From: Promicromonospora thailandica | GTDB taxonomy: Bacteria; Actinomycetota; Actinomycetes; Actinomycetales; Cellulomonadaceae | NCBI RefSeq assembly: GCF_024171955.1 | Contig: NZ_JAMTCS010000015.1 | Span: forward strand, 1-64,000 | Direction of reading: 5' to 3' | Length of the DNA: 64,000 nt | Part shown: piece by piece, positions 29,203 to 46,805 of the stretch | Layout of the letters: each line of letters starts with the position of its first letter | Numbering within the stretch: position 1 is the stretch's first letter | Notes under the pieces: model-generated | Told to the model about the DNA's origin: nothing | The model's input: the letters and a program-made list of their open reading frames with translations, nothing else | The model's database searches: none | Position numbers and translations under genes: made by a program

Positions 29203-29209
29203 CCGCACA

Positions 29210-29315
29210 ATCATCCAGAGCGGTCGAGAGTCCTGGCTCCACGACACCGCAGCAACCTACCTCCGAGGCGCCACGCTCGGGGCAAGGTGCTAACGCCAGG
29301 TCCGATGGAGCTGAT
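29210..29315 (+). ncRNA. SAM riboswitch (S-box/SAM-I-like) controlling metE
   Basis: Hallmarks in order: P1 start ATCATCCAGAG (29210-29220), P2 GCGGT (29220-29224) with ACCGC (29246-29250), conserved GCAGCAACC (29249-29257), P3 CCGAG/CTCGG (29262-29280), AAGGTGCTAACGCCAGG (29284-29300), where GCCAGG can pair with CCTGGC (29232-29237 region), and P1 close TGAT (29312-29315). The P1 3' side carries GGAG (29307-29310), the ribosome-binding site nine bases before the metE ATG. SAM binding should therefore hide that site and block methionine synthase translation. Family assignment is by eye. Confidence 0.85.
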
Positions 29316-31723: not shown

Positions 31724-31837
31724 GCCGAGATAGAACCCTGGCGAGGTAGAACTGCAGCGAGGTAGAACCGCAGCGCACCTGGGTGCGCTGCGGTTCTACC
31801 TCGCTGCAGTTCTACTTCGCTGCAGTTCTACCTCGGC
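31724..31837. terminator. Giant hairpin of tandem 16-mers between metE and the lytic protease gene
   Basis: Arms 31724-31778 and 31783-31837 are 55 bases each and nearly complementary, with a CTGG loop. Each arm is itself about three copies of a 16-base unit (GAGGTAGAACTGCAGC on the left; its complement GTTCTACCTCGCTGCA on the right). It lies between two converging genes and could stop transcription from both sides. Its internal periodicity is much more than a terminator needs. Confidence 0.75.
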
Positions 31838-31847
31838 AGATCGGGGG

Positions 31848-33446
31848 TCAGCCGACGCGCCACTTCTGGGCCGCGGTGCCGTTGCAGGTCCAGATCTGCA
31901 GCGGTGTGCCGTCCGCGCTGTTGCTGTTCGGCACGTCGACGCACTTGTTCGCGAGGATCGAGACCAGGTCGCCGGCCCCGCTCAGGGTGAACCGCTGCGC
32001 CGCGTTGCCGCTGCAGTTGGCGAGCTGCACCGCGGTGCCGTCGGCGGTGTTGCCCCACGCGACGTCCATGCACAGGCCGCCCGCGCGCAGCGTGCCGTCG
32101 GAGTGGAACGTCCAGCGCTGCGCGGCCGTGCCGTTGCAGGTCCACAGCTGCAGGCGTTTGCCGTCGGTGAACTCCGAGTTCGGCACGTCGATGCACTTGT
32201 TCGCCAGGCCCACGAGCGGCCGCCCACCGCTGCCACCCGACGTCGTGGTGAGCTGCAGGCCGTAGTTGCTCAGGATCGGGTTGAGCGGCTGGTAGATGAA
32301 CCGGCCGTTCGTGGAGCAGTCACCGATGCGGCCCGACGTGACGCCCTGGGCCTGGTTGCCCGAGATCACCGAGCCGCCGGAGTCGCCGCCCTCGGCGCAG
32401 GCCGACCCGGTCGCCATGCCGGGGATGTCGCCGTTGCCGTAGTTGATGGTCACGTTCTTCTCCTGGATGACGCCGCAGCGCCAGCCCGTGGTGCGGCCCG
32501 ACCGGCACACCGACGCGCCGATCCCCTGCTCCGCGGAGCCCGCGACGGCCACGGTGCCGCCCGCGTAGTTGTTCACCGCCGGGGTGGGCGTCCACGCGCT
32601 GGTGGTGCCGACCCACGCCCAGTCGCGCCCGGGGAAGGTCGAACCGCGGTAGGTGCCGAGGGCCGTGCCGTCCGGGGCGTTGACCGGGTCGCCCGTCGAG
32701 CCGCAGTGCCCGGCCGTGACGAACCCGCCCGACACCGCGAACCCGATCGAGCAGAGGGTCACGTACCCGTTGCCGAGCGGCTTGTGGAACTCGTCGCCGC
32801 CGCGGATGTCGCGCGCCGTCTGCGGCGCCACCGCGGACTTCTCCACCCGCACCACGTCGGCCGGCACGCCCGCCCGGGCGACCATCGCCTTCGCGGCCGC
32901 GAGGTCGGCGGCCTCGACGACCACCTCGTTGGTCGTGGGGTCGGCGTACCAGGCGTGCACGGAGGCGGGCGCCCCGACGTCGTCCAGGGACTCCTTCCAG
33001 GACGTCAGGGTGTCCAGCCCGTGCTCGACGACGACGGCGTCCGCCCCCGCGCGCTCGGCGACGGCGGCGGCCGCCCGGCTGGTCACGGCCACGCGCGGGG
33101 CGTCGGCGCCCCGGGGCAGCCACGTGCCGGCGTAGTCCTCGCCGAGCGTCGCGGCCAGGTGCGCCTCGACGATCGCCGCCTCGGCGTCGAGCGCCAGGCG
33201 CTCGGGGATCTCGGCGCGGGTGAGGCCGAGGTCGCGCTCCATCGCGCGGACCTGGCCGTCGGGCAGGTCGGCGGCGGTGACGCCCGCCGCGCCGCTGGTG
33301 CTGCTGGTGCTGCCGGCGATGCCCGTCGTGGCGGCCGAGGGCGACGCTGCCCCCGCCGCGGACGCGCCGGTGAACGCCGTACCGACCACGAGTGCGGCGG
33401 CTGACAGCGCTATCAGGGAACGGGACGTTCTCAGGGTTCGTGACAT
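31848..33446 (-). CDS. Secreted lytic serine protease with ricin-B lectin domain
   Basis: A 532-residue preproprotein. Signal peptide about 1-34; pro-region about 55-210 of the alpha-lytic type (two lobes); catalytic S1 domain about 211-400 with H247 (TAGHC), D275 (GRDWAWV) and S356 (GGDSGGS); Gly/Ser linker; then a beta-trefoil ricin-B/CBM13 lectin (410-532) with repeated CIDVPNS, QLWTCNGTAAQRW and QIWTCNGTAAQKW. The layout matches yeast-lytic proteases of Oerskovia/Rarobacter type, whose lectin binds mannan. GAGGAG precedes the ATG at 33446. Codons 11-15 overlap a LacI-type operator. Confidence 0.93.
   Translation of the reverse strand: MSRTLRTSRSLIALSAAALVVGTAFTGASAAGAASPSAATTGIAGSTSSTSGAAGVTAADLPDGQVRAMERDLGLTRAEIPERLALDAEAAIVEAHLAATLGEDYAGTWLPRGADAPRVAVTSRAAAAVAERAGADAVVVEHGLDTLTSWKESLDDVGAPASVHAWYADPTTNEVVVEAADLAAAKAMVARAGVPADVVRVEKSAVAPQTARDIRGGDEFHKPLGNGYVTLCSIGFAVSGGFVTAGHCGSTGDPVNAPDGTALGTYRGSTFPGRDWAWVGTTSAWTPTPAVNNYAGGTVAVAGSAEQGIGASVCRSGRTTGWRCGVIQEKNVTINYGNGDIPGMATGSACAEGGDSGGSVISGNQAQGVTSGRIGDCSTNGRFIYQPLNPILSNYGLQLTTTSGGSGGRPLVGLANKCIDVPNSEFTDGKRLQLWTCNGTAAQRWTFHSDGTLRAGGLCMDVAWGNTADGTAVQLANCSGNAAQRFTLSGAGDLVSILANKCVDVPNSNSADGTPLQIWTCNGTAAQKWRVG
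33402..33415. promoter_or_regulatory. LacI-type operator copy inside the protease signal-peptide codons
   Basis: TGACAGCGCTATCA differs at one position from the perfect palindrome TGACAGCGCTGTCA upstream of the mannosidase. It lies 31-44 bases downstream of the protease start codon, a place where a repressor could block elongation. Confidence 0.55.
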
Positions 33447-33490
33447 GGTGTGCTCCTCGTCAGGCCTGGGGAACCTCGTGTGTGCCTGGG

Positions 33491-33496
33491 AGCGTA
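33491..33496 (-). promoter_or_regulatory. Possible -10 box of the lytic protease gene
   Basis: On the minus strand TACGCT lies 44 bases before the ATG at 33446, with a weak TTCTGG about 18 bases further upstream as -35. The rest of 33447-33612 shows no gene. Confidence 0.35.
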
Positions 33497-33612
33497 TTGA
33501 CGCCCCGTCAGACCCAGAACGCCTGCGCCGTCACCATGTGCAAACTACGTAACCCGGACGCGGTACAACCCGTAGCCCAGCCCTCAGCGTCCACCTTTTC
33601 ACCCACCACCAA

Positions 33613-33680
33613 CGAGGTCGGTCGGTTGCCTCGAGATCGGTCCATCGATGGACCGATCTCGAGGCAACCGACCGACCTCG
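33613..33680. terminator. 68-base perfect palindrome after the mannosidase gene
   Basis: Bases 33613-33646 are an exact reverse complement of 33647-33680: 34-base arms without mismatch, centred on ATCGAT. It lies 16 bases beyond the stop of the GH92 gene, and RNA made from either strand folds into one long hairpin. Termination is the likely role. Confidence 0.75.
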
Positions 33681-33695
33681 CCGGTGCGGCCTCCG

Positions 33696-36600
33696 CTAGC
33701 CGCAGGCGCCGCCCGCGTACGGGGCCGTCACCGTCTGCGTCGCCTTCTGGCCGTCGACGGTCGTCGTGACGACGGCCGTGACCGCACCCGTGCCGATCTG
33801 CGCCGAGCCGGCCTCGAACGTCACCTCGCCGGTGCCGTCCAGCGTCCGCGTCCCGAAGTCGGACGTCACCGTGACCGACGCCGCCGCGTCGCCGGACGAG
33901 CCCTCGACCTGCACCCGCAGGGCGCCGTCCCCGTCGGCGCAGACCGGGGTGGCCCACACCGTGATGCTGTCGGCGGCGTCCTCGGCCTGAGCCTCGGCGC
34001 GGGTCCGCGGGTCCGGCGTCGCGGTGCCGAGCGGCACCTCGTCGGCGCCCGCACCCTGGTCGGCGAGCAGCTCCAGCTCGGCCAGCGACAGGTCGCCGTC
34101 GCCGGCCGTCGCCGTCACCACGAGGCGCAGGTGCTCGTACGGCTCGGGATCGTCGTCCACCTGGAACGCGCGCGTCTGCAGCGCCCAGCGGAACTGCTGC
34201 CGGGTGCGCTCGTCGAGCACGGTCCAGCGCTCGCCGTCGTGCGAGCCCTCCAGCCGCCAGGCCGACGGCGTCGCCGTGCCCTCGGCGCCCGAGGTGAGCG
34301 TGTAGGTGCCCACCGCGGCCGCCGCGCCGGAGCCGTCCCACGTGACCGTCGGCGTGCCGGTGGCGAACGTGGCGCGCGAGTCGGACGTGTCGTCCACCAG
34401 AGCCGCGGCGTCCGTGCCGTCGGAGACCGTGACCCGGCCCGCGGGCGTGGCGTCCCGGGCCGGGGTCGGCAACGCGTCGCCCTCGGTGAGCGACGGCGGC
34501 GCGTCGTCCTCCCCGGTGCCCCACGCCGAAGGCTCCGGACCCATCACGAAGTCGATCCGGGCACCGCCGGTCAGGTCGTCCCGGGACAGCGACGTCGACG
34601 TGCGCCGCTTCCCGTCCACGCGCAGCGACTGCACGTAGACGTTCTCGACGGAGTTGTCCCGCGCCGTGATCACCACGTCGCCGTCGGGCCGGTGCACCGT
34701 GGCCTTCTCGAACAGCGGCGAGCCGACCGCGTACTGGTCGGAGCCCACCTGCAGCGGGTAGAAGCCGAGCGCGGCGAAGATCCACCACGACGACATCTCG
34801 CCGTTGTCCTCGTCGCCCGGGTAGCCCTGGCCGATCTCGCTGCCCACGAACAGGCGGCGCGTGACCTCCCGGACGATCTCCTGGGTCTTGTGGGGCGCGC
34901 CCGCGGCGTCGTACAGCCACGGGATGTGGTGGGACACCTGGTTGCTCATGCCCCACTGCCCCAGCCGGATGTCCCGCGCCTCGCGCATCTCGTGGATGAC
35001 GCCGCCGTAGCCGCCCGTGTGGGTGGCGTCCTCGGGCGTGGCGAAGAACTCGTCGAGCTTGTCCTCCAGCCCCTCCCGGCCGCCGTACAGGTTGCCCAGG
35101 CCGCGCGGGTCCTGCGGTGCGTGGAACGAGAAGTTCCAGCCGCTGGTCTCGGTGTAGCCGCCGCCCCACGTGCGCGGGTCGTACTCGTTCGGCGCGTTGA
35201 GGAACGTGCCGTCGGCGTGCCGCGGCTGGAAGAAGCCGATCCGCTCGTCGAAGAGCTCGCCGTAGTGCGTGGCACGCTCCAGGAAGTAGGCCGACTCCTC
35301 GCGCAGCTGCGCGCGCCGCTCGCGCGGGGTGCGCTTGTCCGCCGCGAGCGCCGCGGCCATGTTGCCGATGCCGAAGTCGTTGATCAGCCCCTCCAGGCCC
35401 CACGAGACCGACTCGTGCGTGCTCTCGGGCGTGAACCCGAGGAACGGCGAGGTCTCCAGGCCCTTGCGGCCCACCGCGTCGTTCGGCGGCGCGACGGTGC
35501 CGTTCTTCAGCGCGGCGTCGTAGGCGTCGAGCGCCGTGCGCGTCGGCAGGGCGCCCTTGAGGTAGGCCTCCGCGAACGCGACGTCGGACGAGGTGCCCGT
35601 CATGAGGTCGGCGTAGCCCGGCGAGGACCAGCGGGCGATCCAGCCGCCGTCGCGGTACTGCTGCACGAACCCGTCCACCAGCTCCTTCGCGACGTCCGGG
35701 TACAGGAACGAGTACGCGGGCCACGCGGTGCGGTAGGTGTCCCAGAACCCGTTGTTGACGTAGATCTTGCCGTCGACGACCTCGGCGTTCGTCTCGGTGT
35801 CCGTGGCCTCGCCCGACGGCGCGGACACGGGGCTCGCGTACCGGTACACGGGCTTGCGCGCGGTGCCGGTGTTCTCGAACTGGGAGTTCGGGTACAGGTT
35901 GAGGCGGTACAGGTTGGAGTACAGCGTCACGAGCTGGTCCTCGGTGCCGCCCTGGGTCTCGACCACGCCGAGGCGGTCGTCCCACTGCTCCTGCGCGGCG
36001 TGCCGCACCGCGGCGAACGAGCGGTCCGCGACCTCCAGCCGCAGGTTGGCGCGCGCCTGCTCCAGCCCGATGAACGAGGTGGCCACGCGCAGCTCGACCG
36101 TGCGGTCGCGGCCCGTGGGGAACGTCGCGTAGCGCGCGCCGTCGCGGTCGCCGGCGGCCCGGCCGACGGCGGACGGCGCCCGGTCGAACGTGCCCGCCAC
36201 GTACATCCGGGTGCGCCCGACGGACAGTCCGCTGCCGTTCTCGACCCAGCCGGTCAGCTCGCCGGTGGCGGTGTCGAACGACAGCTTCGAGGCACCGGCC
36301 ACGCGGTCGACGAGCACGTGCCCGGTGCCGTCCGCGGCGTCCTTCGGGAACGTGTACCGCAGCACGGCGGCGTGGTCGCTGGGCGTCACCTCGGCCCGGA
36401 CGCCGTTCACGAACGTCACGCCGTAGTAGTCGGGGCGCGCCGTCTCGTCGGCGTGGTCGAACGCCAGGCCGCGCGCCCGCAGCCCGGCGTCGGGCACGCC
36501 CGCGCCGGTGGCGGGCTGGAAGGCGAGCTGGTTGCGGTCGCCCATCCAGGGGCTGGGCTCGTGCGAGATGCCGATGCCCTGCAGCACCGGGCGGTTCTGC

Positions 36601-37991
36601 GCGTCGTTGGCGGCCTGGTACTCGTACAGCCAGGTCTGCGAGGACGCGTTGGTCAGCGGCGTCCAGAAGTTGAAGCCGTTGGGCACGGCCGTGGCGGGCA
36701 CGTTGTTGCCGCGCGAGAACGACCCGCTGGACAGCGTGCCGCGGCGCGTGTCCACGTAGCCCGTGGGGCTGCTCGCGTCGATCCGCTGGGGGTGGGCCTC
36801 GATCGTCACGTCGTCGAGCCAGCCCGCGAACCGCGAGCCGACGGCACCGCCGCCGTTGTCGTAGCCGAGCAGGATCTGGTCCACGGTCTTGCCGCGGGCC
36901 ACCGGCCCGAGGTCGACCCGCACGGAGTTCCACTGGTCGGCGTAGAGGATCTTGCCGGCGCCCTGGCCCCCGGGGGTCGCGGCCGTGCCGTGCGCGTCGC
37001 GCGCCCGCAGGCCCGACAGGTAGGTGCCGTCGGTGAACCGCAGGTCCACGCTCGTGTAGGTCGACGGGTACTGCAGGTCGGCGAGCAGCTCGGGGAAGAT
37101 CTTCCAGCTCAGCCGGGTGTCGCGGCCCACGCGCACGTCCACGTCGTCGTACAGGACGTTGGTCGCGTACGCCTCCCCGTCGCCCAGGTGGCCGCCCTCG
37201 TAGCGCAGCGACCGGGTGCCGGTGAAACCCACCTCCGTCTTGTTGGTCCAGCTCACCGTCTGCGGCCCGGAGCCGACGGCGGTGACCATGGGCTGTCGCG
37301 CGGGCTGCTCGGTGAGGTCCTCGGAGAGGTCCCAGTCGGCGAGCTGCGTGCCGTCGGAGCCGTTGTTGCGCGTGATGTCGAGCCGGAACCACGTGTAGGG
37401 CTCGGTGGCCGCGTCCAGCTCGAAGACCCGGCGCTGGAACCGCTCGGTGAACCGCTCGTCGGTGCGCTCGTCGAGCGTCTGCCAGGTCTCGCCGTCCGTC
37501 GAGCCCTGCAGGGTCCACGACCGGGGGTCGCGGTCGGCGAAGTCGTTGGCCGAGGTCAGCGAGTAGCCGGTCAGCGCGGTGGGCTCGGACGTCTCGTAGG
37601 TGATCCAGCCCGTCCGGGCGAACGTGAGCCACTTGGTGGCCGACGACCAGTCGGCCAGGTTCGCGGCGGTCTCGTTCGGCGGGTTCTCGCCGCTGGCCGC
37701 GACGTCGCCCACGCGGTCGAGCACGCTGCCGGGCAGGCCCGGCACGAACTCGCCGACGTTCTGCTGCCACGGGGCGCCGCCCCGCTCGGCGGGCGTCGAC
37801 TCGAGCGGCGCGGTGTCGCCCTCCTCGAACGAGGTGGTGAAGTCGCCGCGGGCGGGCGCACCGCCGGACCCTGGTGGAGCCCCCGGTGCGGCGGCCGCCC
37901 CGCCGGCCGGGATCGCGAGCAGGAGGGCGAGCGCGCCGGAGAGTGCGGCGGCCGCCCGCCGGGACCTGGCCCGGCCGGTGACTGATGACAT
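33696..37991 (-). CDS. Secreted GH92 alpha-mannosidase with carbohydrate-binding-like modules
   Basis: A 1431-residue exported enzyme. Signal peptide 1-35 (ALSGALALLLAIPAGGAAAA). An F5/8-type (discoidin/CBM32-like) module near 75-200 (RSWTLQGSTDGETWQTLDER), then a galactose-binding-like domain to about 400. GH92 domains follow from about 430: RRGTLSSGSFSRGNNVPATA, GYADLMTGTSSDVAFAEAYL and the calcium/catalytic GYPGDEDNGEMSSWW with ALGFYPLQVGSDQYAVGSP. A second discoidin-like domain and a beta domain end the protein. GH92 enzymes are calcium-dependent exo-alpha-mannosidases. GGAGACCCCT precedes the ATG at 37991. No cell-wall anchor seen. Confidence 0.95.
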   Translation of the reverse strand: MSSVTGRARSRRAAAALSGALALLLAIPAGGAAAAPGAPPGSGGAPARGDFTTSFEEGDTAPLESTPAERGGAPWQQNVGEFVPGLPGSVLDRVGDVAASGENPPNETAANLADWSSATKWLTFARTGWITYETSEPTALTGYSLTSANDFADRDPRSWTLQGSTDGETWQTLDERTDERFTERFQRRVFELDAATEPYTWFRLDITRNNGSDGTQLADWDLSEDLTEQPARQPMVTAVGSGPQTVSWTNKTEVGFTGTRSLRYEGGHLGDGEAYATNVLYDDVDVRVGRDTRLSWKIFPELLADLQYPSTYTSVDLRFTDGTYLSGLRARDAHGTAATPGGQGAGKILYADQWNSVRVDLGPVARGKTVDQILLGYDNGGGAVGSRFAGWLDDVTIEAHPQRIDASSPTGYVDTRRGTLSSGSFSRGNNVPATAVPNGFNFWTPLTNASSQTWLYEYQAANDAQNRPVLQGIGISHEPSPWMGDRNQLAFQPATGAGVPDAGLRARGLAFDHADETARPDYYGVTFVNGVRAEVTPSDHAAVLRYTFPKDAADGTGHVLVDRVAGASKLSFDTATGELTGWVENGSGLSVGRTRMYVAGTFDRAPSAVGRAAGDRDGARYATFPTGRDRTVELRVATSFIGLEQARANLRLEVADRSFAAVRHAAQEQWDDRLGVVETQGGTEDQLVTLYSNLYRLNLYPNSQFENTGTARKPVYRYASPVSAPSGEATDTETNAEVVDGKIYVNNGFWDTYRTAWPAYSFLYPDVAKELVDGFVQQYRDGGWIARWSSPGYADLMTGTSSDVAFAEAYLKGALPTRTALDAYDAALKNGTVAPPNDAVGRKGLETSPFLGFTPESTHESVSWGLEGLINDFGIGNMAAALAADKRTPRERRAQLREESAYFLERATHYGELFDERIGFFQPRHADGTFLNAPNEYDPRTWGGGYTETSGWNFSFHAPQDPRGLGNLYGGREGLEDKLDEFFATPEDATHTGGYGGVIHEMREARDIRLGQWGMSNQVSHHIPWLYDAAGAPHKTQEIVREVTRRLFVGSEIGQGYPGDEDNGEMSSWWIFAALGFYPLQVGSDQYAVGSPLFEKATVHRPDGDVVITARDNSVENVYVQSLRVDGKRRTSTSLSRDDLTGGARIDFVMGPEPSAWGTGEDDAPPSLTEGDALPTPARDATPAGRVTVSDGTDAAALVDDTSDSRATFATGTPTVTWDGSGAAAAVGTYTLTSGAEGTATPSAWRLEGSHDGERWTVLDERTRQQFRWALQTRAFQVDDDPEPYEHLRLVVTATAGDGDLSLAELELLADQGAGADEVPLGTATPDPRTRAEAQAEDAADSITVWATPVCADGDGALRVQVEGSSGDAAASVTVTSDFGTRTLDGTGEVTFEAGSAQIGTGAVTAVVTTTVDGQKATQTVTAPYAGGACG

Positions 37992-38009
37992 AGGGGTCTC
38001 CTCGTCGGC

Positions 38010-38023
38010 TGACAGCGCTGTCA
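38010..38023. promoter_or_regulatory. LacI-type operator of the mannosidase gene
   Basis: TGACAGCGCTGTCA is a perfect 14-base palindrome. With the promoter TTGACA/TACGTT just upstream, it covers about +1 to +14 of the predicted transcript, the classical position for a LacI-family repressor. The adjacent LacI gene ends 33 bases away. Confidence 0.8.
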
Positions 38024-38030
38024 AACGCAG

Positions 38031-38060
38031 AACGTAGGTGCAGGTCAGGCCCCGTGTCAA
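38031..38060 (-). promoter_or_regulatory. Promoter of the mannosidase gene
   Basis: On the minus strand TTGACA (38055-38060) and TACGTT (38031-38036) are 18 bases apart. The -35 box overlaps the last codon of the upstream lacI-type gene, so the mannosidase gene has its own start inside the operon end. Confidence 0.65.
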
Positions 38061-39061
38061 CGGGGCGGACGCTCCCCGCTGCCGCGCGGGAGCACCCTCG
38101 TGGGCAGCACCACGAGCTCGACCGGGCGGTCGGGCTCGGCGGAGCGTGCCACGGCGAGCTCGGCGGCCCGCCGGCCCATCTCGACGGCGTCGTACGCCAC
38201 CACCGTGATGCCCAGCAGGTCGGCCAGCTCGAAGTCGTCGAAGCCCACCACGGCCACCTCGTCGCCGCCCGGCACCTCGTGCAGGGCCTGGAGCGTGCCG
38301 ACGGTGGCCCGGTTGTTCGCCGCGAGCACCGCGGTGGGCGGCTCGGGCGAGGCGAGCAGCTCGGCCGCGAGGTCCCGGGCGGCGGCCGCGGAGTGCGCGC
38401 CGGAGCGCAGCCAGCGCCCGGCGTCGGGCACCCCGGCCTCCGCCATCACGGCCAGGAACTCGGCGCTGCGCTCCTGGTAGGTCCACAGGTGCGGCTCGTC
38501 GCCCACGAACCCGATGCGGCGGTGACCGTGCTCCAGCAGGTGCAGGGTCGCGGCGCGCGCCCCGCCCCGGTTGTCGATGACGACGGTGTCGACGTCCATC
38601 CCGGCGGCGGGCCGGTCCACCACGACCACGGTGAGGCCGGCGGCGATCTCCCCGCGCAGGGCCGAGTGGTCGGCGCCCGCGGGCGTCACGATGAGGGCGC
38701 CCACCCGCCGCTCCAGGAGCTCGCCGGTCAGCGAGCCCTCCCGCTCCGGGTCCTCGTCGGACGACGCCGTCAGGAGCTGCAGCCCGTGCTCGCGCAGCTC
38801 GCGCTCGATGCCGCTGGCCAGGGCGGAGTAGAACTCGTTGGCCAGGTCGCCCGTGATGAACCCGACCAGCCGGGAGAACCCGCCGCGCGCCAGGTCGGCC
38901 GCGACGGCGTTGCGCCGGAAGCCCAGCGAGACGGCGGCGTCCCGCACCCGCTCACGCGTCGCGGGGGCCACGTTGGGCTCCCCGTTGAGCACGCGCGAGG
39001 CGGTCTTGAGGCTCACCCCGGCGGCCTCGGCCACCACCGCGAGCGTCGGACGACGGATCAT
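38057..39061 (-). CDS. LacI-family repressor
   Basis: A 334-residue regulator. Helix-turn-helix TLAVVAEAAGVSLKTASRVL with hinge helix RNAVAADLARGG, then a periplasmic-binding-protein-like sugar domain (LVGFITGDLANEFYSALASG, HRRIGFVGDEPHLW, AVVGFDDFELADLLGITVV). It is the fifth gene of a run that begins with the ROK regulator, one base after the permease stop, and lies directly upstream of the mannosidase whose start carries a perfect LacI-type palindrome. Mannose or a manno-oligosaccharide is the inferred inducer. Confidence 0.92.
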   Translation of the reverse strand: MIRRPTLAVVAEAAGVSLKTASRVLNGEPNVAPATRERVRDAAVSLGFRRNAVAADLARGGFSRLVGFITGDLANEFYSALASGIERELREHGLQLLTASSDEDPEREGSLTGELLERRVGALIVTPAGADHSALRGEIAAGLTVVVVDRPAAGMDVDTVVIDNRGGARAATLHLLEHGHRRIGFVGDEPHLWTYQERSAEFLAVMAEAGVPDAGRWLRSGAHSAAAARDLAAELLASPEPPTAVLAANNRATVGTLQALHEVPGGDEVAVVGFDDFELADLLGITVVAYDAVEMGRRAAELAVARSAEPDRPVELVVLPTRVLPRGSGERPPR

Positions 39062-39062
39062 G

Positions 39063-40247
39063 TCACACCTCTCTGCGCTTCCGCACGAGCATGTCGATGA
39101 TGATGGCCAGCAGCAGCACCGCGCCGGTCACCATGTAGCGGGCCGCCTGGTCCACGTTCATCAGCGTGAGGCCGTTGGCGATGGACTGGATGACGAGCAC
39201 GCCGAGCACCGCCGACCACGCGCTGCCCCGCCCGCCGAACAGGCTCGTGCCGCCGATCACCGCGGCGGCGATGGCGACCAGGTACGTGTCGGCGCCGCCG
39301 GTGCCCTGGTTGGCCGCGCCGAGGCGGCCCGCGGCGAGCACGCCGCCGAGCGCCGCGAGCGTCGAGCACGCCACGAAGCAGAGCACCACGGTGCTCCGGA
39401 CCGGCACGCCGGCGAGCGTCGCGGCCCGCCGGTCGCCGCCCACGGCGCGCACCGACCGGCCCCAGCGGGTGCGCCGCAGCAGCACGTCCGCGACCACGAC
39501 CAGCCCCGCGAACAGCACCACGGAGTACCCGATGCCGCGCGCCGCGCCGAGGTAGGCGACGATCACCGACAGCACGGCGGCCAGCCCGCCCGTGCGCACC
39601 AGCACCTGGCCCACGCTCGCCGCGGGCAGGTCGGCCCGGCGACGGCGCGCCCGGGCGGTCACCTGCACGACCGCCGACGTGACGACGACCACCGCCACGA
39701 GCGCCCAGGCCACGCCGGTGGGCAGGAAGCCCTGCTGGACCGACCGCACGAACCACGACTCGAAGGGCAGGTTGATCGACCCGAGCGGGCCGAGCACCCG
39801 CAGCTGCACCCCCGCCAGGAACAGCAGGCCGGCCAGCGTGAACACGAAGCTCGGCAGCCCCAGCCGGGTCGACAGCAGGCCGTAGCCCAGGCCCACCACG
39901 ACCCCGCACGCGAGCGCCGCGAGGATCGCGAGCGCCACGGGCCACCCGAGGGTCACGGAGCCGACGGCGACGACGGCGGCGGCGAGCCCGCTGAGCGACC
40001 CGACCGACAGGTCGATCTGGCCCACGAGCAGCACGAGCACGACGCCGAGGGCGATGACGCCCACGGGCGCGCTCTGCAGCGTGAGGTTGACGAGGTTCTC
40101 GGGGGCGAGGAAGGCGGGGTTGACGGCGCCGAGCACGATCCAGACCGCGGCGAGGGCCGCCACGATCGGCAGCAGGCTGCTGCCGCCGCGCACGCGCTGC
40201 CAGACGGCGCCGGGCAGGCCGGCCCCGGGCTGGCCCGTGGCGCTCAT
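39063..40247 (-). CDS. CUT2 sugar ABC transporter permease (XylH/RbsC-like)
   Basis: A 394-residue membrane protein with about ten helices. Family features are NLVNLTLQSAPVGVIALGV, LVGQIDLSVGSLSGLAAAV and the cytoplasmic coupling loop GGDRRAATLAGVPVRSTV near residue 280, then AAVIGGTSLFGGRGS. Size and an extra middle segment (ARARRRRADLP) resemble XylH. The ATG overlaps the ATPase stop (ATGA, 40244-40247), so transporter subunits are made together. Substrate probably a pentose or hexose released outside; mannose is plausible from context only. Confidence 0.9.
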   Translation of the reverse strand: MSATGQPGAGLPGAVWQRVRGGSSLLPIVAALAAVWIVLGAVNPAFLAPENLVNLTLQSAPVGVIALGVVLVLLVGQIDLSVGSLSGLAAAVVAVGSVTLGWPVALAILAALACGVVVGLGYGLLSTRLGLPSFVFTLAGLLFLAGVQLRVLGPLGSINLPFESWFVRSVQQGFLPTGVAWALVAVVVVTSAVVQVTARARRRRADLPAASVGQVLVRTGGLAAVLSVIVAYLGAARGIGYSVVLFAGLVVVADVLLRRTRWGRSVRAVGGDRRAATLAGVPVRSTVVLCFVACSTLAALGGVLAAGRLGAANQGTGGADTYLVAIAAAVIGGTSLFGGRGSAWSAVLGVLVIQSIANGLTLMNVDQAARYMVTGAVLLLAIIIDMLVRKRREV

Positions 40248-41029
40248 CGGCGCACCCCCCTGATGTCGGGCCGGGTCTCGCGCCGGGCGCCGGGCCGTAC
40301 CGCTCCGGTCATGGCGGCGAGCAGGTCCTCGTAGGAGGCGTCGCCGTCGAACACGTCGTGCACGCGCCCGAGGCGCAGCACCACGATGCGGTCGGCGACG
40401 GCCTGCAGGTCGCCGGCCTGGTGGCTGACCAGGACGACGGCGTGGCCGCGCTCGCGCAGCCGGACGATGAGGTTGAGCACCTGCGCGGTCTGGCGGACGC
40501 CGAGGGAGGCGGTGGGCTCGTCGAGCACGACGACGCGCGGGGAGCCGAGCAGGGCGCGTGCGACGGCGACGACCTGGCGCTGCCCGCCGGACAGGGTGCG
40601 CACGGGGTCGCGCACGGAGGGCACGCTGGCGGCGAGCTGGTCGAGCAGGCGCCAGGCCTCGCGCTCCATGGCGACCTCGTCGAGCAGCGGGCCGCGCAGG
40701 GTCTCGTGCCCGAGGAACAGGTTCTCGACGACGTCGAGGTCGTCCACGAGGGCGAGCTCCTGGAAGACGGCGGCGATGCCGAGGGCGCGGGCGGCGGCGG
40801 GCGAGTCGAGCACGACGGACCGGCCCTCCAGCAGCACCTCCCCCGCGTCGGGGCGGTGGGCGCCGGCGAGCACGCCGGCGAGGGTGGACTTGCCGGCGCC
40901 GTTGTCGCCGACGACGGCGAGCACCTCGTGCTCGCGCACGTCGACGTCGACGTCGACCAGGGCACGGACGCCACCGAACCGCTTGGAGACGCCGCGCACC
41001 GAGAGGAGGGGCACCTGGGGCTCGCTCAT
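40244..41029 (-). CDS. CUT2 sugar ABC transporter ATPase, single-domain
   Basis: A 261-residue ATPase with Walker A GDNGAGKST, Q-loop FQELALVDDL, signature LSGGQRQ, Walker B VVVLDEPTASLG and switch His in VLVSHQAGD. Most CUT2 ATPases (RbsA, XylG) are two fused copies of about 500 residues; this one has only one, like FrcA-type proteins, so it should act as a homodimer. It overlaps both neighbours by ATGA. Confidence 0.92.
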   Translation of the reverse strand: MSEPQVPLLSVRGVSKRFGGVRALVDVDVDVREHEVLAVVGDNGAGKSTLAGVLAGAHRPDAGEVLLEGRSVVLDSPAAARALGIAAVFQELALVDDLDVVENLFLGHETLRGPLLDEVAMEREAWRLLDQLAASVPSVRDPVRTLSGGQRQVVAVARALLGSPRVVVLDEPTASLGVRQTAQVLNLIVRLRERGHAVVLVSHQAGDLQAVADRIVVLRLGRVHDVFDGDASYEDLLAAMTGAVRPGARRETRPDIRGVRR

Positions 41030-42180
41030 CCGTCCGCCTCCCCCGTCGCGCCCACGAGCCCGGCGCGCTCGCAGGCGGCCTCGTAGGCCGGGACGCAGAT
41101 CTCGTCGGTCGAGTAGACGTGACCGTCGACGATGACGTGCTCGACGTCGGCCGCGGCCACCGCCCGGGGGGCGAGCAGCACCGTGGGCACGCCCTGCGTG
41201 ACGGCGGTGGTGCGGGGGTCCTGCCCGCGCAGCACGCGCACGGCGAGCTCGGCGGCGGTGGCTGCCTGCTGGTCGGTGGCCTTGTAGACGGTCATGAACT
41301 GGTCGCCCGCGACGATGCGCTGCACGGCGGACAGCTCGCCGTCCTGCCCGGTGGTGACGGGCACGGGGTCGAGGCCCGCGGCCTTGGCGGCCGCGACGGC
41401 ACCTCCGGCGATGGCGTCGTTGGCGGCGAGGATGCCGTCGACGCGGCCGGGGTACTGGCTGAGCATGGCCTCGGTCCACTCGGTGGCCTTGTCGGGGCTC
41501 CAGTCGGGCGTGTAGTGCTCGGCGAGCACGTCGATGTCCTCTCCGTCGAGGGCGCGGCGGGTGCCCTGGGCGATCGCCAGGGCGTTGGGGTCGGTGGCCG
41601 AGCCGTGCGCGAGCAGCACCCCGGGCCGCCCGCCGTCGTCCCGTCCGGCCGCCCGGTCCAGGACGGTGCCGGCCAGGGCCGAGCCCAGCAGGAAGCCGAT
41701 GAACTCGTAGTCGTACGACACGTAGTAGTCCGCGCCGTCCACGAACCGATCGTAGGCGATGACCTGGGCGCCGAGGCGGTTGGCCTGCGCCACGATGCCG
41801 ACGGCCGCGACGGTGTCGACGGCGTCGAGCACCAGCACGTCGGCGCCCTGGGCGAGCATGGACTCGGCCTGCTGGAGCTGCGCGGCGGCGTCCTGCGCGG
41901 CGTTGGCGTACAGCACGGTGCAGCCCGGGCAGCGGCGGCCGGTCACGGCGACGAAGGTGGGCCGGTCGGAGGCCTCGTAGCGCGCGGTCTGCGCCTCGGG
42001 CAGCAGGAGCCCGATGGTCCCCTCGACCGTGCCGGTCGCGACACGTCCGCCGCCGCCCCCGGCCCCGCACCCGGCGAGCAGCAGGCCGAGCCCCACGACC
42101 CCGGCCACGACCCCCCGCACCCTCCGGTGGGTGGGCGAGGACCCCGCACTCAGCGGGGCCGGAGGACGGGTGCGGGTCAT
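41026..42180 (-). CDS. Sugar-binding lipoprotein of the CUT2 ABC transporter
   Basis: A 384-residue lipoprotein: signal segment GVVAGVVGLGLLLAGC with lipidated Cys38. The body is a periplasmic-binding-protein type I fold as in XylF: IGLLLPEAQTARYEASDRP, a Cys pair RRCPGCTV, LVLDAVDTVAAVGIV, GILAANDAIAGGAVAA and VTTGQDGELSAVQRI. It captures sugar at the outer membrane face and feeds the permease at 39063. Start and stop overlap the ROK and ATPase genes by four bases each. Confidence 0.9.
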   Translation of the reverse strand: MTRTRPPAPLSAGSSPTHRRVRGVVAGVVGLGLLLAGCGAGGGGGRVATGTVEGTIGLLLPEAQTARYEASDRPTFVAVTGRRCPGCTVLYANAAQDAAAQLQQAESMLAQGADVLVLDAVDTVAAVGIVAQANRLGAQVIAYDRFVDGADYYVSYDYEFIGFLLGSALAGTVLDRAAGRDDGGRPGVLLAHGSATDPNALAIAQGTRRALDGEDIDVLAEHYTPDWSPDKATEWTEAMLSQYPGRVDGILAANDAIAGGAVAAAKAAGLDPVPVTTGQDGELSAVQRIVAGDQFMTVYKATDQQAATAAELAVRVLRGQDPRTTAVTQGVPTVLLAPRAVAAADVEHVIVDGHVYSTDEICVPAYEAACERAGLVGATGEADG

Positions 42181-43361
42181 GTGGTCACCCCCAGGGAGCC
42201 GTTCGCGCGCGCCTGGTCGAGGGCCGCGGCCAGCGCGCCGCGCACGCCCGCGTCGGCGCCCAGCAGCGAGCGCACGACGTCGACGGGCCCGCGCGAGGTG
42301 GCCACGACGCGCTGCCCGAGCGCGGTGCGCAGGGGCTCGAGCAGCAGGTCGCCGGCCTCGGCGAGCTGCCCGCCGATGACCACGACGTCCGGGTCCACCA
42401 GGTTGCACAGGTTGGCCAGCGCGACCCCGAGGTGCCGGCCGGCGTCGAAGACGACCCGGCGGCAGCCCGCGTCGCCGTCCCGCGCGCGGGTCACGAGGTC
42501 GGCGAGCGTGAGGTGGCCTGCGTCGGGCGGCAGCATGGACAGCAGGCTGCCCGCGCCCACCAGCATCTCGAGGCAGCCGCGGTTGCCGCAGCGGCACACG
42601 GGGCCGCTCTCGTCCACGGACACGTGCCCGATCTCGCCGGCCACGCCGGACCGCCCGTGCACCGCCCGGCCGCCCAGCACCAGCCCGCCGCCCACGCCGT
42701 GCGAGACGCGCACGTAGGCGACCGAGTCGTGGCCGGCGCCGGCGCCGAACCGGGCCTCGGCGATGGCGGCGAGCGTGGAGTCGTTGTCGGTGGTCACGGG
42801 CACGCCGAGCTCGGCCTCCAGCGCGTCGTCGACACGCACGCCGTCCCAGCCCCGCATCATGCCGACGGTGACGACCTCGCCGGTGCGGATGTCGACGGGC
42901 GCGGGCACGCCGACGCCGACGGCGAGCAGCTCGTCCGGGTCGGCGTCCACGTCCAGCAGCATCTCGCGCACGAGCATCGCCGTGCGCTGCAGGCCGGCGT
43001 CGGCGCGGTGGTCGGGCGCGAGCGGCATGCGCTGCTCGGCCAGGACGCGCATGGAGGCGTCGGCCAGCGCGACGCTCAGGGACCGCTGGCCGAACCGGAT
43101 GCCCGCCACGAGGCCGAGGTTCCGCGCGAGCGTGACCTGGAGCGCGCGCCGCCCGTTGCGGATGGACTGCGCGGTGTGCAGCACGCCGGCGGCCGAGAGC
43201 TCCTTGACGATGTTCGAGATGGTGGCCGGGGACAGCCCTGTGACGCCGGCCAGCTCGATCTGCGTGAGGGAGCCACGCTGCTGGACGGCGCTCACGATCC
43301 GGGCTCGGTTGGCCTCACGCAGTGAGGTCTGCGAACCCGGGGTCACCCGATCCGCGCGCAC
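42177..43361 (-). CDS. ROK-family transcriptional repressor
   Basis: A 394-residue regulator of the XylR/NagC type. N-terminal winged helix IELAGVTGLSPATISNIVKE, then the ROK sugar domain with VGVGVPAPVDIRTGEV, SHGVGGGLVLGG and the zinc motif GHVSVDESGPVC, CRCGNRGCLE. It heads the CUT2 transporter operon. GTG start at 43361: the minus strand has TACCCT (43369-43374) seven bases before it and no ribosome-binding site. A palindrome at 43415-43426, between it and the divergent CUT1 transporter, is a likely binding site, so it may control both transporters. Confidence 0.9.
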   Translation of the reverse strand: MRADRVTPGSQTSLREANRARIVSAVQQRGSLTQIELAGVTGLSPATISNIVKELSAAGVLHTAQSIRNGRRALQVTLARNLGLVAGIRFGQRSLSVALADASMRVLAEQRMPLAPDHRADAGLQRTAMLVREMLLDVDADPDELLAVGVGVPAPVDIRTGEVVTVGMMRGWDGVRVDDALEAELGVPVTTDNDSTLAAIAEARFGAGAGHDSVAYVRVSHGVGGGLVLGGRAVHGRSGVAGEIGHVSVDESGPVCRCGNRGCLEMLVGAGSLLSMLPPDAGHLTLADLVTRARDGDAGCRRVVFDAGRHLGVALANLCNLVDPDVVVIGGQLAEAGDLLLEPLRTALGQRVVATSRGPVDVVRSLLGADAGVRGALAAALDQARANGSLGVTT

Positions 43362-43414
43362 AGCGCCCAGGGTAACCGCCTTCCTGGGTGCTCCGAGGGC
43401 TTTGGATACACGAA

Positions 43415-43426
43415 CTGAACGTTCAG
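43415..43426. promoter_or_regulatory. Palindrome between the two sugar-transporter operons
   Basis: CTGAACGTTCAG is a perfect 12-base palindrome located about 40 bases upstream of each divergent promoter. It is a candidate ROK operator. Confidence 0.55.
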
Positions 43427-43457
43427 GTCACGATCGGGCGACGCTTGCGTTCACTTC

Positions 43458-43486
43458 TTGACACCAAGACGCCCCCGCCGTTCGAT
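43458..43486 (+). promoter_or_regulatory. Promoter of the CUT1 transporter operon
   Basis: TTGACA (43458-43463), 17 bases, TTCGAT (43481-43486). This leaves a 5' leader of about 115 bases before the ATG at 43607, in contrast to the leaderless genes around it. No riboswitch was recognised in the leader. Confidence 0.6.
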
Positions 43487-43606
43487 AGGACCCGGGTTCA
43501 CGGGCGTACAGGCGCGCCCGGCCGGCCCCAGGCACGACGTCGTCCCACGGAGGTGGCGGCTCCCTGGCCGGTGCTCCAGCGACCGAGGAAGGTTGAGGGA
43601 CCCCAG

Positions 43607-44893: not shown

Positions 44894-44923
44894 CGCCCCG
44901 CGCCGTCACCCGCGCACACGCCG

Positions 44924-44953
44924 CGCGCCGTCGGGCCCCCGCCCGGCGGCGCG
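44924..44953 (+). promoter_or_regulatory. Intercistronic hairpin after the binding-protein gene
   Basis: CGCGCCGTCGGGC (44924-44936) pairs with GCCCGGCGGCGCG (44941-44953) with one G-U pair and a CCCC loop. It sits 31 bases after the binding-protein stop. Such hairpins often stabilise the upstream mRNA or partly stop transcription, so that the binding protein exceeds the permeases. Confidence 0.6.
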
Positions 44954-45012
44954 TGGCCGCGCCCACCACCACACCTGAGCCACCACCGAAGCCACCACCG
45001 AGGTAGCCCCGC

Positions 45013-45915
45013 ATGCTCAAGAAACTGCGGCGAGTCGGACCACCCCTCCTGCTGCTCGCCCCGTCCCTGATCCTCGTCGGCGTCTTCGTCTACGGGCTGA
45101 TCGCCGCCAACTTCTCCACGTCCTTCACGGACAGCCACACCGCCGCGCAGGCCACGAGGCAGAAGCCCACCGCCTTCGTGTGGTTCACGAACTACCTCGA
45201 CCTCCTGGCCAGCGAGGACTTCCAGCACTCGCTGATGAACCTGCTGCTGTACACGGTGGTGTTCCTCGTCGGCACGATGGTCATGGGCTTCCTGTGGGCC
45301 TGGATGCTGGAGAAGCCCGTCAAGGGCGAAGGCCTGTTCCGCTCGGTGTACCTCTTCCCGATGGCGGTCTCGTTCGTCGCCTCCGGCGTGGTGTGGCGGT
45401 GGCTCCTGAACTCCAACCAGGACGAGCAGGCCTCCGGCCTGAACCGGCTGTTCCAGATCGTCGGCCTCGACGTGCTGCAGAACAACTGGTGGAACAACAT
45501 CACCTTCGGCATCGTCGCCATCGCGATCCCCGCGATCTGGCAGCTGTCGGGCTATGTGATGGCGCTGTTCCTGGCCGGGTTCCGCGGCATCCCCGACGAG
45601 CTGCGCGAGGCCGCCCGGATGGACGGCGCCAGCGAGTGGAAGCTGTACCGGCACGTGCTGTTCCCGCAGCTCTCGCCCGTCGCACTGTCCGCCCTGATCA
45701 TCATCGGCCACATGTCGCTCAAGGCGTTCGACCTCATCATGTCGATCTCCAAGCCGGCCAACTACCAGACCAAGGTGCCGGCCGTGGACATGTTCGTGTT
45801 CAAGTCGAGCTTCGACTACGCGAACGCCGCCGCCGTCGGCTCCATCCTGCTGATCATCGTGGCGCTCGTCATCGTGCCGTACCTGATCCGCACGAACCGC
45901 GAGGAGAAGCGATGA
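45013..45915 (+). CDS. CUT1 ABC transporter permease, MalF/GtsB-like
   Basis: A 300-residue protein with six membrane helices starting at residue 10. The EAA coupling motif is EAARMDGASEWKLYRHVLFP near 198-217. Other segments typical of the glucose/mannose type are FPMAVSFVASGVVWRWLLN and AFDLIMSISKPANYQTKVPA. GAGGT precedes the ATG at 45013. The stop overlaps the next permease gene (ATGA). No ATPase gene is in this operon, so a shared MsmK-type ATPase encoded elsewhere must energise it. Confidence 0.93.
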   Translation: MLKKLRRVGPPLLLLAPSLILVGVFVYGLIAANFSTSFTDSHTAAQATRQKPTAFVWFTNYLDLLASEDFQHSLMNLLLYTVVFLVGTMVMGFLWAWMLEKPVKGEGLFRSVYLFPMAVSFVASGVVWRWLLNSNQDEQASGLNRLFQIVGLDVLQNNWWNNITFGIVAIAIPAIWQLSGYVMALFLAGFRGIPDELREAARMDGASEWKLYRHVLFPQLSPVALSALIIIGHMSLKAFDLIMSISKPANYQTKVPAVDMFVFKSSFDYANAAAVGSILLIIVALVIVPYLIRTNREEKR

Positions 45916-46805
45916 CCGCCGCCGCCGAACAGCTCACGGCGCCGCGCCAGGCCGTGGGCGGGCCCGGCCCCCGCGTGGCGCGCAGCCGCTACTCGCTGGC
46001 GCGCACGCTGCGCTACGCCGCCCTGATCTTCTTCCTCGTGGTCGTGCTGGTCCCGGTGTACGTGCTGCTCGTGACGAGCTTCAAGGGCACCGGCGACGCC
46101 GACCCGAGCCGCGCCTGGGCGCTGCCCCAGATCTGGACGCTGGAGAACTGGGCCACCGCGTGGACCGCGCTGTCCCCCTCGATCGTGCGCACCGTCGCCG
46201 TGGTGGTGCCCAGCGCGGTCATCGCGGCGTTCCTCGGCTCGCTGAACGGGTTCGTGCTGGCCCGGTGGAGCTTCCGCGGCGCGGACATCGTGTTCACCGT
46301 GATCCTGTTCGGCATGTTCATCCCGTACCAGGCGGTGATGATCCCGCTCACCCAGCTCGTGCTGGACCTGGGCATCCCCACCGGCGTGCCCACCCTGATC
46401 CTGCTGCACGTGGTCTACGGCATCCCGATCACGACGCTGATCTTCCGCAACTACTACGCCACGGTGCCGCACGAGCTCATCGAGGCGGGCCGGGTCGACG
46501 GCGCGGGCATGCTGCGCACCTACTGGTCCATCGTGCTGCCCCTGTCGGTCCCGAGCTTCGTGGTCGTGCTCATCTGGCAGTTCACCTCGGCCTGGAACGA
46601 CTTCCTGTTCGCGGTGTTCTTCTCGTCGTCGCAGAACGGCCCGGTGACCGTGGCCCTGAACAACCTCGCCAACGGCGCGCTGCTGCAGAACTACGGCGTC
46701 TCCATGGCGGGCGCCCTGTTCGCGTCGCTGCCCACCCTGATCGTCTACATCATCCTGGGCAAGTACTTCGTCGGCGGCCTGATGTCGGGGTCGGTCAAGG
46801 GCTGA
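45912..46805 (+). CDS. CUT1 ABC transporter permease, MalG/GtsC-like
   Basis: A 297-residue protein with six helices; the EAA motif is EAGRVDGAGMLRTYWSIVLP near 192-211. It pairs with the preceding permease to form the channel (heterodimer). FGMFIPYQAVMIPLTQLV and WNDFLFAVFFSSS are family-typical. It is translationally coupled by the ATGA overlap and is the last gene of the operon, ending 18 bases before the converging hydrolase gene. Confidence 0.93.
   Translation: MTAAAEQLTAPRQAVGGPGPRVARSRYSLARTLRYAALIFFLVVVLVPVYVLLVTSFKGTGDADPSRAWALPQIWTLENWATAWTALSPSIVRTVAVVVPSAVIAAFLGSLNGFVLARWSFRGADIVFTVILFGMFIPYQAVMIPLTQLVLDLGIPTGVPTLILLHVVYGIPITTLIFRNYYATVPHELIEAGRVDGAGMLRTYWSIVLPLSVPSFVVVLIWQFTSAWNDFLFAVFFSSSQNGPVTVALNNLANGALLQNYGVSMAGALFASLPTLIVYIILGKYFVGGLMSGSVKG

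What the first reader, a model, noticed from the sequence alone, without database searches (positions are those of the whole stretch)
31848..46805. Candidate mannoprotein/N-glycan utilisation locus
A lectin-bearing yeast-lytic-type protease, a 1431-residue GH92 mannosidase, a LacI repressor, a CUT2 transporter, a ROK repressor and a GtsA-like CUT1 transporter lie together. The protease could cleave mannoprotein, the mannosidase strip mannose, and the transporters import it. The protease and mannosidase families are known; their joining into one regulated predation-like unit is inference.
Basis: partly seen in the sequence, partly recalled or inferred. Interest (0 to 1): 0.75.

Follow-up and report, generated by a model that had tools for sequence, protein, structure and literature searches.

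The report
Yeast-mannan regulon including a lectin protease
A soil actinobacterium appears to control a sugar-binding protease and mannan-cutting enzymes with one repressor, so that it could dismantle the mannoprotein coat of yeast or fungal cells as a single programme.

Summary
The locus is three modules: a glucose-binding-type CUT1 importer; a ROK-CUT2 module resembling Streptomyces rok7B7-xylFGH (probably not mannose); and LacI-GH92-protease. The new evidence is a perfect palindrome, TGACAGCGCTGTCA, 18 bp before the GH92 start, the only exact copy in the 5.4-Mb genome. One-mismatch copies lie in codons 11-15 of the protease and at three of four GH76 (mannanase-family) genes. In the genus, 19 of 30 fetched GH76 loci carry one (300 control palindromes: mean 0.03, maximum 4). 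In another genus whose LacI has the same recognition helix, 6 of one genome's 12 sites stand at GH92 genes or a unit containing GH92, one at GH81, one 133 bp before a homologous lectin protease; but only 1 of 5 proteases there has an exact site. This supports a LacI regulon for alpha-mannan/mannoprotein that includes the protease. Gene order is not random: 12 of 13 Promicromonospora genomes keep the locus with the protease, 9 with GH92 between. Binding, induction and yeast lysis are untested.

The parts
31848..33446 (-). Secreted alpha-lytic-type serine protease: signal peptide, prodomain, S1 domain (His247, Asp275, Ser356), ricin-B/CBM13-type lectin domain (about residues 411-532)
   Evidence: Pfam PF02983, PF00652; PDB matches 2pfe, 2ea3 for the protease and 1isv for the lectin; triad positions; orthologue (82-87%) in 12 of 13 genus genomes, own included
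33402..33415 (.). LacI-type operator copy, 1 mismatch (TGATAGCGCTGTCA read with the gene), in protease codons 11-15
   Evidence: exact same letters in 10 of 12 Promicromonospora proteases, 2 mismatches to the palindrome in the other two; rare ATA and TCA codons kept in 11 of 12
33607..33686 (.). Near-perfect 40-bp inverted repeat between GH92 stop and protease start, probable terminator
33696..37991 (-). Secreted multi-domain GH92 alpha-mannosidase, 1431 aa; alpha-1,2 signature Trp482, His1000-Glu1001; general acid Glu948
   Evidence: Pfam; 7nsn 1280 bits; residue mapping against PMC10167667 passages
38010..38023 (.). Perfect 14-bp palindrome TGACAGCGCTGTCA, proposed LacI operator, 18 bp before GH92 ATG
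   Evidence: only exact copy in the genome; 8 of 9 genus genomes with this GH92 have a copy at <=2 mismatches; 8 of 8 loci L017-L024 at <=1
38057..39061 (-). LacI-family regulator, recognition helix GVSLKTASR
   Evidence: Pfam; helix identical in LacI relatives of unnamed genera g5, g7, g14 and in Cellulosimicrobium, Oerskovia and Isoptericola
39063..40247 (-). CUT2 permease (GguB-like, below NCBIfam cut-off)
40244..41029 (-). CUT2 single-domain ATPase
41026..42180 (-). CUT2 binding lipoprotein, XylF/ChvE-like
42177..43361 (-). ROK-family regulator with winged HTH (Rok7B7-like context)
43362..43606 (.). Divergent ROK/CUT1 promoter region, strongly conserved, no LacI operator copy at <=3 mismatches in this genome
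43607..44893 (+). CUT1 binding lipoprotein, nearest solved relative the glucose-binding protein 2b3b
45013..45915 (+). CUT1 permease (GlcT-like, below cut-off)
45912..46805 (+). CUT1 permease (GlcU-like, below cut-off)

Best explanation
The LacI regulator at 38057-39061 represses a dispersed regulon for alpha-mannan and mannoprotein by binding TGACA-NCGN-TGTCA. Here the site lies just before GH92 and in the first codons of the protease; elsewhere in the genome copies stand at three GH76 genes. A mannose-derived inducer would release it. The protease would be held on the mannose-rich coat by its lectin domain and cut the protein. GH76 would cut the alpha-1,6 backbone and GH92 would trim alpha-1,2-mannose. 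The glucose-binding-type CUT1 system, with an ATPase encoded elsewhere, would import the monosaccharide. ROK-CUT2 is a linked module of the rok7B7-xylFGH type, probably for another aldose. Shown: gene content, conserved order, operator distribution, conserved LacI recognition helix, GH92 signature residues. Inferred: that this LacI binds these sites, the inducer, the lectin's sugar, and growth on yeast or fungal walls.
For: Exact operator only at GH92 genome-wide; the 11 sites at <=1 mismatch include the protease and three of four GH76 genes. 19 of 30 fetched GH76 loci of the genus carry one; 300 composition-matched control palindromes average 0.03, maximum 4. In the window, 200 control palindromes average 0.010 copies and none has two, against 2 observed. 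The protease copy has the same letters in 10 of 12 genomes, including 3 without the neighbouring GH92, where the protease directly follows LacI. Genus g5: in G016 all 12 exact TGACANCGNTGTCA sites were inspected; 5 are at GH92 genes, 1 before a two-gene unit ending in GH92, 1 at GH81, and 1 lies 133 bp before the homologous lectin protease. LacI helix GVSLKTASR is identical there. In Cellulosimicrobium and Oerskovia, sites also lie at CUT1/ROK and at an AGE-family epimerase.
Against: No binding or expression data. The protease site lies inside coding sequence, and rare codons 2 and 6 are also conserved, so a 5' codon effect could explain part of it. Of five g5 proteases examined, one has an exact site (G016), two (both G040) only 2-mismatch ones, two (G056, G071) none. 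In genera g7 and g14 the protease has only 2-mismatch copies or none, in a signal peptide reading LTAL that favours such letters. Outside the genus GH76 is rarely linked: in nine g5, g7 and g14 genomes 1 of 10 GH76 matches has an exact site within 1 kb, and the three g14 genomes have no GH76 at all. Within the genus, the 12 top-scoring GH76 loci (L124-L135) have it in 4. Of the other own-genome sites, three lie well inside ORFs (GH38, DUF554, a binding protein) and look like chance, and one precedes a multicopper oxidase. The CUT1/ROK promoter here has no copy.
Confidence: 0.64

Rival explanations
1. Only GH92 and the GH76 genes are in the LacI regulon. The protease is a neighbour with its own control, and its operator-like codons reflect signal-peptide coding and 5' codon bias.
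For: The site is within coding sequence; codons 2 and 6 are also rare and conserved; related genera encode LTAL at the same place with weaker copies. Two of five g5 proteases have no copy. A strong hairpin separates it from GH92.
Against: Same letters in 10 of 12 genomes; in G016 an exact site lies 133 bp upstream, outside coding sequence, where coding cannot explain it. LacI and protease stay adjacent without GH92 in 3 genomes.
Confidence: 0.25
2. The locus serves high-mannose N-glycans of plant or other glycoproteins rather than yeast or fungal walls.
For: GH92 enzymes also act on mannose-rich glycans (PMC10167667 and PMC5930347 passages); a general protease could free glycopeptides.
Against: GH76 is aimed at the alpha-1,6 backbone of yeast mannan (family knowledge), and in G016 the same palindrome stands at a GH81 gene, a beta-1,3-glucanase family by family knowledge.
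Confidence: 0.25
3. The core is a rok7B7-xylFGH pentose-uptake locus, and GH92 and protease are hitchhikers.
For: The CUT2 binding protein best matches XylF; the same ROK-CUT2 set lies near GH92 in 22 of 28 Streptomyces loci; XylFGH/Rok7B7 are a xylose system there (PMC8966007, PMC4848846 passages).
Against: The palindrome sits at GH92 and GH76 genes; none of the own-genome sites inspected was at a xylanase family. Protease-CUT1 linkage exists without ROK or CUT2 in genus g14 (4 of 4 loci).
Confidence: 0.12

Closest known systems
Rarobacter faecitabidus protease I (yeast-lytic, mannose-binding)
   Same: Serine protease with a C-terminal CBM13/ricin-type repeat domain (described in PMC1458353 passages)
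   Different: Nothing on its gene context was in the passages I saw.
Neobacillus novalis GH92 alpha-1,2-mannosidase (7nsn)
   Same: Related over residues 20-1310, same +1 triad and general acid (PMC10167667 passages)
   Different: The alignment stops at residue 1310 of 1431; the C-terminal end is unmatched
Streptomyces rok7B7-xylFGH
   Same: ROK regulator beside a XylF-type CUT2 operon (PMC8966007, PMC4848846 passages)
   Different: Here followed by LacI and GH92; single-domain ATPase; binding protein scores 171.8 against the xylF cut-off of 389.55; no direct comparison with the S. coelicolor proteins was made
Streptomyces lavendulae yeast predation programme
   Same: GH92 mannosidases induced with yeast, mean 16.1-fold (PMC13170338 passages)
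   Different: The words protease, peptidase, LacI, repressor, regulon and operon do not occur in its main text
LacI-family ManR regulons
   Same: LacI regulators of mannose and mannosides are listed in PMC4052901 (passages)
   Different: The words mannan and mannosidase do not occur in that paper's main text

Membership tests
GH92 alpha-1,2-mannosidase | GH92 catalytic and N-terminal domains over Pfam cut-off | tested here: met
   436.9 and 123.8 bits against 24.6 and 34.5
GH92 alpha-1,2-mannosidase | +1 triad Trp, His-Glu and general acid Glu | tested here: met
   Trp482, His1000-Glu1001, Glu948 (PMC10167667 passages)
GH92 alpha-1,2-mannosidase | Activity on alpha-1,2-mannobiose or yeast mannan | not testable with these tools
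   needs enzyme assay
Alpha-lytic protease type | Prodomain and His-Asp-Ser triad | tested here: met
   PF02983 49.8 bits against 23.4; GHCG, GRD and GDSGG aligned with 2pfe, positions
Rarobacter protease I-type yeast-lytic protease | C-terminal ricin-B/CBM13 lectin | tested here: met
   PF00652 96.2 bits
Rarobacter protease I-type yeast-lytic protease | Mannose binding and yeast lysis | not testable with these tools
   needs binding and lysis assays
Rarobacter protease I-type yeast-lytic protease | Sequence orthology to protease I | not tested
LacI-regulated mannan regulon | LacI HTH and palindromic operator near the regulator gene | tested here: met
LacI-regulated mannan regulon | Operator enriched at pathway genes and conserved in the genus | tested here: met
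LacI-regulated mannan regulon | Same gene set under the operator in other genera | tested here: inconclusive
   GH92 and one lectin protease in g5, but 1 of 10 GH76 matches in nine g5, g7, g14 genomes
LacI-regulated mannan regulon | DNA binding and inducer response | not testable with these tools
   needs EMSA or RNA-seq
XylFGH xylose transporter | Binding protein over the xylF equivalog cut-off | tested here: not met
   171.8 against 389.55 bits
GlcSTU/GtsABC glucose importer | Binding protein over the GlcS cut-off | tested here: not met
   132.1 against 500 bits

The most novel reading that the evidence does not exclude
One LacI-type repressor runs a fungal cell-wall attack regulon shared by at least two actinobacterial genera. 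It couples mannan-cutting enzymes (GH92, in Promicromonospora also GH76), in the other genus also a GH81 (beta-1,3-glucanase family) gene, and a lectin-guided protease to the same operator. In Promicromonospora the protease operator is built into its own signal-peptide codons, so repression acts as a roadblock after the start codon.
Probability: 0.45. Interest if true: 0.72.

Novelty: new variant of a known kind. Interest (0 to 1): 0.58.

Why it matters
Yeast-lytic proteases, mannanases and glucanases of these bacteria are described as separate enzymes in the texts I saw; a single operator joining them would turn 'predation-like' from a guess into a testable regulon. It gives an exact DNA motif with which to find further members, including large proteins of unknown role (DUF218, PAP2, no-family ORFs) that share it in the second genus.

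Tried and rejected
Rejected: CUT2 as a mannose importer (XylF/ChvE-like). Rejected as regulatory evidence: the operator copies well inside GH38, DUF554 and one binding-protein ORF. I first took the G006 LacI as truncated (match 1-237); one search aligns residues 1-334, so I make no claim that it is broken; notes 3 and 6 still carry the earlier or looser wording. The sigma-70 promoter scan found nothing and the terminator scan no more than its shuffles. Rfam at gathering thresholds found only a SAM riboswitch before metE. The ten paper searches listed no description of this regulon; the library is partial, and of the papers I saw listings, and passages of seven (PMC13170338, PMC1458353, PMC8966007, PMC4848846, PMC10167667, PMC5930347, PMC4052901). 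Not done: structure prediction, expression, binding.

Limits of the counts: one search scanned 19 of the 80 named loci; searches used the 30 fetched of 46 GH76 matches, searching the whole fetched stretch of about 4 kb; in G040 4 of 10 and in G056 6 of 10 sites were looked at, in G016 12 of 12; the match list was cut off within G010, and sites of G010-G012 at the locus come. One search sampled 200 genomes of the family. One search searched nine chosen genomes for the exact degenerate pattern only.
Full report
What is there. The window is part of a 5.38-Mb, 24-contig genome, 75% G+C over the window, whose GH92 is 79-82% identical (best segment) to that of four named Promicromonospora. Reading along the minus strand: ROK regulator, CUT2 binding protein, single-domain ATPase, permease, LacI, GH92, lectin protease. 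The CUT1 binding protein and two permeases run the other way from the ROK gene. ROK through LacI are joined by ATGA overlaps or a 1-bp gap. GH92 and protease are separated by a near-perfect 40-bp hairpin (-87 kcal/mol, z -13.4), so the protease is probably transcribed on its own.

The enzymes. GH92 is closest to the Neobacillus novalis alpha-1,2-mannosidase 7nsn (1280 bits) and keeps its +1 triad and general acid (Trp482, His1000-Glu1001, Glu948, passages of PMC10167667 and PMC5930347). The protease has an alpha-lytic prodomain, a trypsin-like domain with the triad, and a ricin-B lectin. A review describes Rarobacter protease I with a mannose-binding domain of this family (PMC1458353 passages). 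The sugar bound here is inference: the best-scoring solved lectin relatives are xylanase and plant-lectin domains.

The transporters. CUT1's binding protein is nearest the glucose-binding protein 2b3b. The CUT2 binding protein is nearest XylF, with ChvE also high. ROK plus CUT2 resembles rok7B7-xylFGH of Streptomyces, which is a xylose system (PMC8966007, PMC4848846 passages). In the named loci the same ROK-CUT2 set lies near GH92 in 22 of 28 Streptomyces loci; some of the other six are cut by contig ends. So mannose import by CUT2 is not supported. CUT1 relatives lie near GH92 in Cellulosimicrobium, Oerskovia, Isoptericola, Pseudokineococcus, Glaciibacter, Phytoactinopolyspora and a Nocardioides MAG.

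Gene order. In the 80 named loci the protease is beside GH92 in 4, all four of the Promicromonospora loci. Across the genus the orthologous protease is in 12 of 13 genomes, each time with CUT1, ROK and LacI in the same stretch; the full CUT2 set was seen in 11 of 12, G004 (83% complete) showing no CUT2 binding protein or ATPase there. GH92 lies between LacI and protease in 9 of 12; in G002, G003 and G005 the protease follows LacI directly. G006 has neither the orthologous protease nor a GH76 match, and in the 18 kb examined keeps only a LacI relative between nhaA and metE, without an operator copy. In genus g14 the protease stands divergently beside a CUT1 binding protein (79-85% identical) in 4 of 4 loci, without ROK, CUT2, LacI or GH92 in the stretch. 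In genus g7 it stands without the other genes of the set in 5 of 5 loci examined.

The operator. TGACAGCGCTGTCA lies 18 bp before the GH92 start and is the only exact copy in the genome; 11 sites exist at <=1 mismatch. By inspection they stand: before GH92; in protease codons 11-15; 94 bp before one GH76, over the start codon of a second, and in codons 38-42 of a third; in the signal peptide of a GH97; 101 bp before a CUT1-type binding protein; before a multicopper oxidase; and well inside GH38, DUF554 and another binding-protein ORF. The last three look like chance. Start codons of these genes are my choice by signal peptide and ribosome-binding site. The genome has four GH76 matches.

Conservation in the genus. 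GH92 sites at <=2 mismatches are present in 8 of 9 genus genomes with this GH92 and at <=1 in 8 of 8 loci L017-L024 of other genera. The protease site has the same letters in 10 of 12 genomes; G001 and G009 have two mismatches to the palindrome. Of 514 protease codon columns only five have a rare commonest codon, at codons 2, 6, 11, 12 and 15. Three fall in the operator, two do not, so a 5' codon effect is not excluded. Among 30 fetched GH76 loci (of 46 matches), 19 have a site at <=1 mismatch and 21 at <=2; control palindromes average 0.03, maximum 4. The 12 top-scoring GH76 loci (L124-L135) have it in only 4; the other 18 in 17.

Another genus of the family. Genus g5 (unnamed, 2.2-2.8 Mb) has 39-54% identical homologues of the protease in four sampled genomes. 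Three of them were searched and carry 10-12 exact TGACANCGNTGTCA sites each, with none for the reversed control pattern. In G016 all 12 were inspected: five at GH92 genes, one before a two-gene unit ending in GH92, one at GH81, one before a protein with weak GDE_C/MGH1-like matches, one DUF218, one PAP2, one without a family, and one 133 bp before the lectin protease. Some lie in gaps with another gene on the far side (aspartyl-type tRNA synthetase, FTR1, SpoU), which I did not count as targets. In G056 a cluster has five sites around four GH92 genes, and another site lies 522 bp before a GH76 match. Of the four G040 sites examined one is at GH92, one at PAP2, one at DUF218, and one at an RCC1-repeat protein near a GH97. 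Of five g5 proteases, G016 has an exact site, the two of G040 have 2-mismatch ones, G056 and G071 none.

The regulator there. The best LacI of the three g5 genomes (48-50% identical) keeps the recognition helix GVSLKTASR, while the second LacI relatives of three g7 genomes do not. G016's LacI gene lies about 6 kb from the last GH92-cluster site, G040's and G056's 13 and 26 kb from the nearest cluster sites. In g7 and g14 there are only 1-3 exact sites per genome; in G025, G058 and G063 one lies within about 240 bp of the LacI gene. GH76 is not linked to exact sites in g7 (0 of 6 matches), is absent from the three g14 genomes, and is linked in 1 of 4 g5 matches: the GH76 link is shown for Promicromonospora only.

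Named relatives. In two Cellulosimicrobium, a site also lies between CUT1 and ROK, and in two others before an AGE-family epimerase; in Oerskovia enterophila sites lie at LacI, CUT1 and GH92; in Isoptericola cucumis at two GH92 genes. In this genome the CUT1/ROK promoter region is conserved but has no copy.

Reading. The simplest account is a LacI regulon for mannan and mannoprotein that includes the protease, with membership changing between genera. A 2026 paper reports GH92 induction in Streptomyces preying on yeast (PMC13170338 passages), which fits the biology but not this regulator. What is not shown: binding, inducer, lectin specificity, growth on yeast.

Noticed in passing
31724-31837: A 56-bp-arm hairpin (-108 kcal/mol, z -15.0) between the convergent protease and metE, built of repeats like GAGGTAGAACTGCAGC. 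The own genome has 63 matches to a 26-base piece at <=2 mismatches (control 0), often as facing inverted pairs: a dispersed hairpin repeat family.
   Followed up: partly
29208-29311: SAM riboswitch (Rfam RF00162) before metE.
   Followed up: no
52346-57040: Large subtilase-family ORF with PA, BNR/sortilin-like and Big_3_5 matches, 1564 aa.
   Followed up: no
L260 and L259 (G016, G056): Clusters of four very large GH92 genes with the same palindrome in most gaps between genes.
   Followed up: yes
L263, L270, L271: Large proteins with DUF218 plus Big_3, or PAP2, preceded by the same palindrome in two g5 genomes; possible new members of a cell-wall regulon.
   Followed up: partly
L183:3242-4558: GH125 alpha-mannosidase on the same small contig (C20) as two GH76 genes and a GntR-type regulator with a LacI-like sensor domain.
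   Followed up: no
43400-43480: Block around TTGGTGTCAAGAAATGAACGCAAGCG (minus strand) between CUT1 and ROK kept in Promicromonospora and two Cellulosimicrobium; possible ROK operator or divergent promoter.
   Followed up: partly
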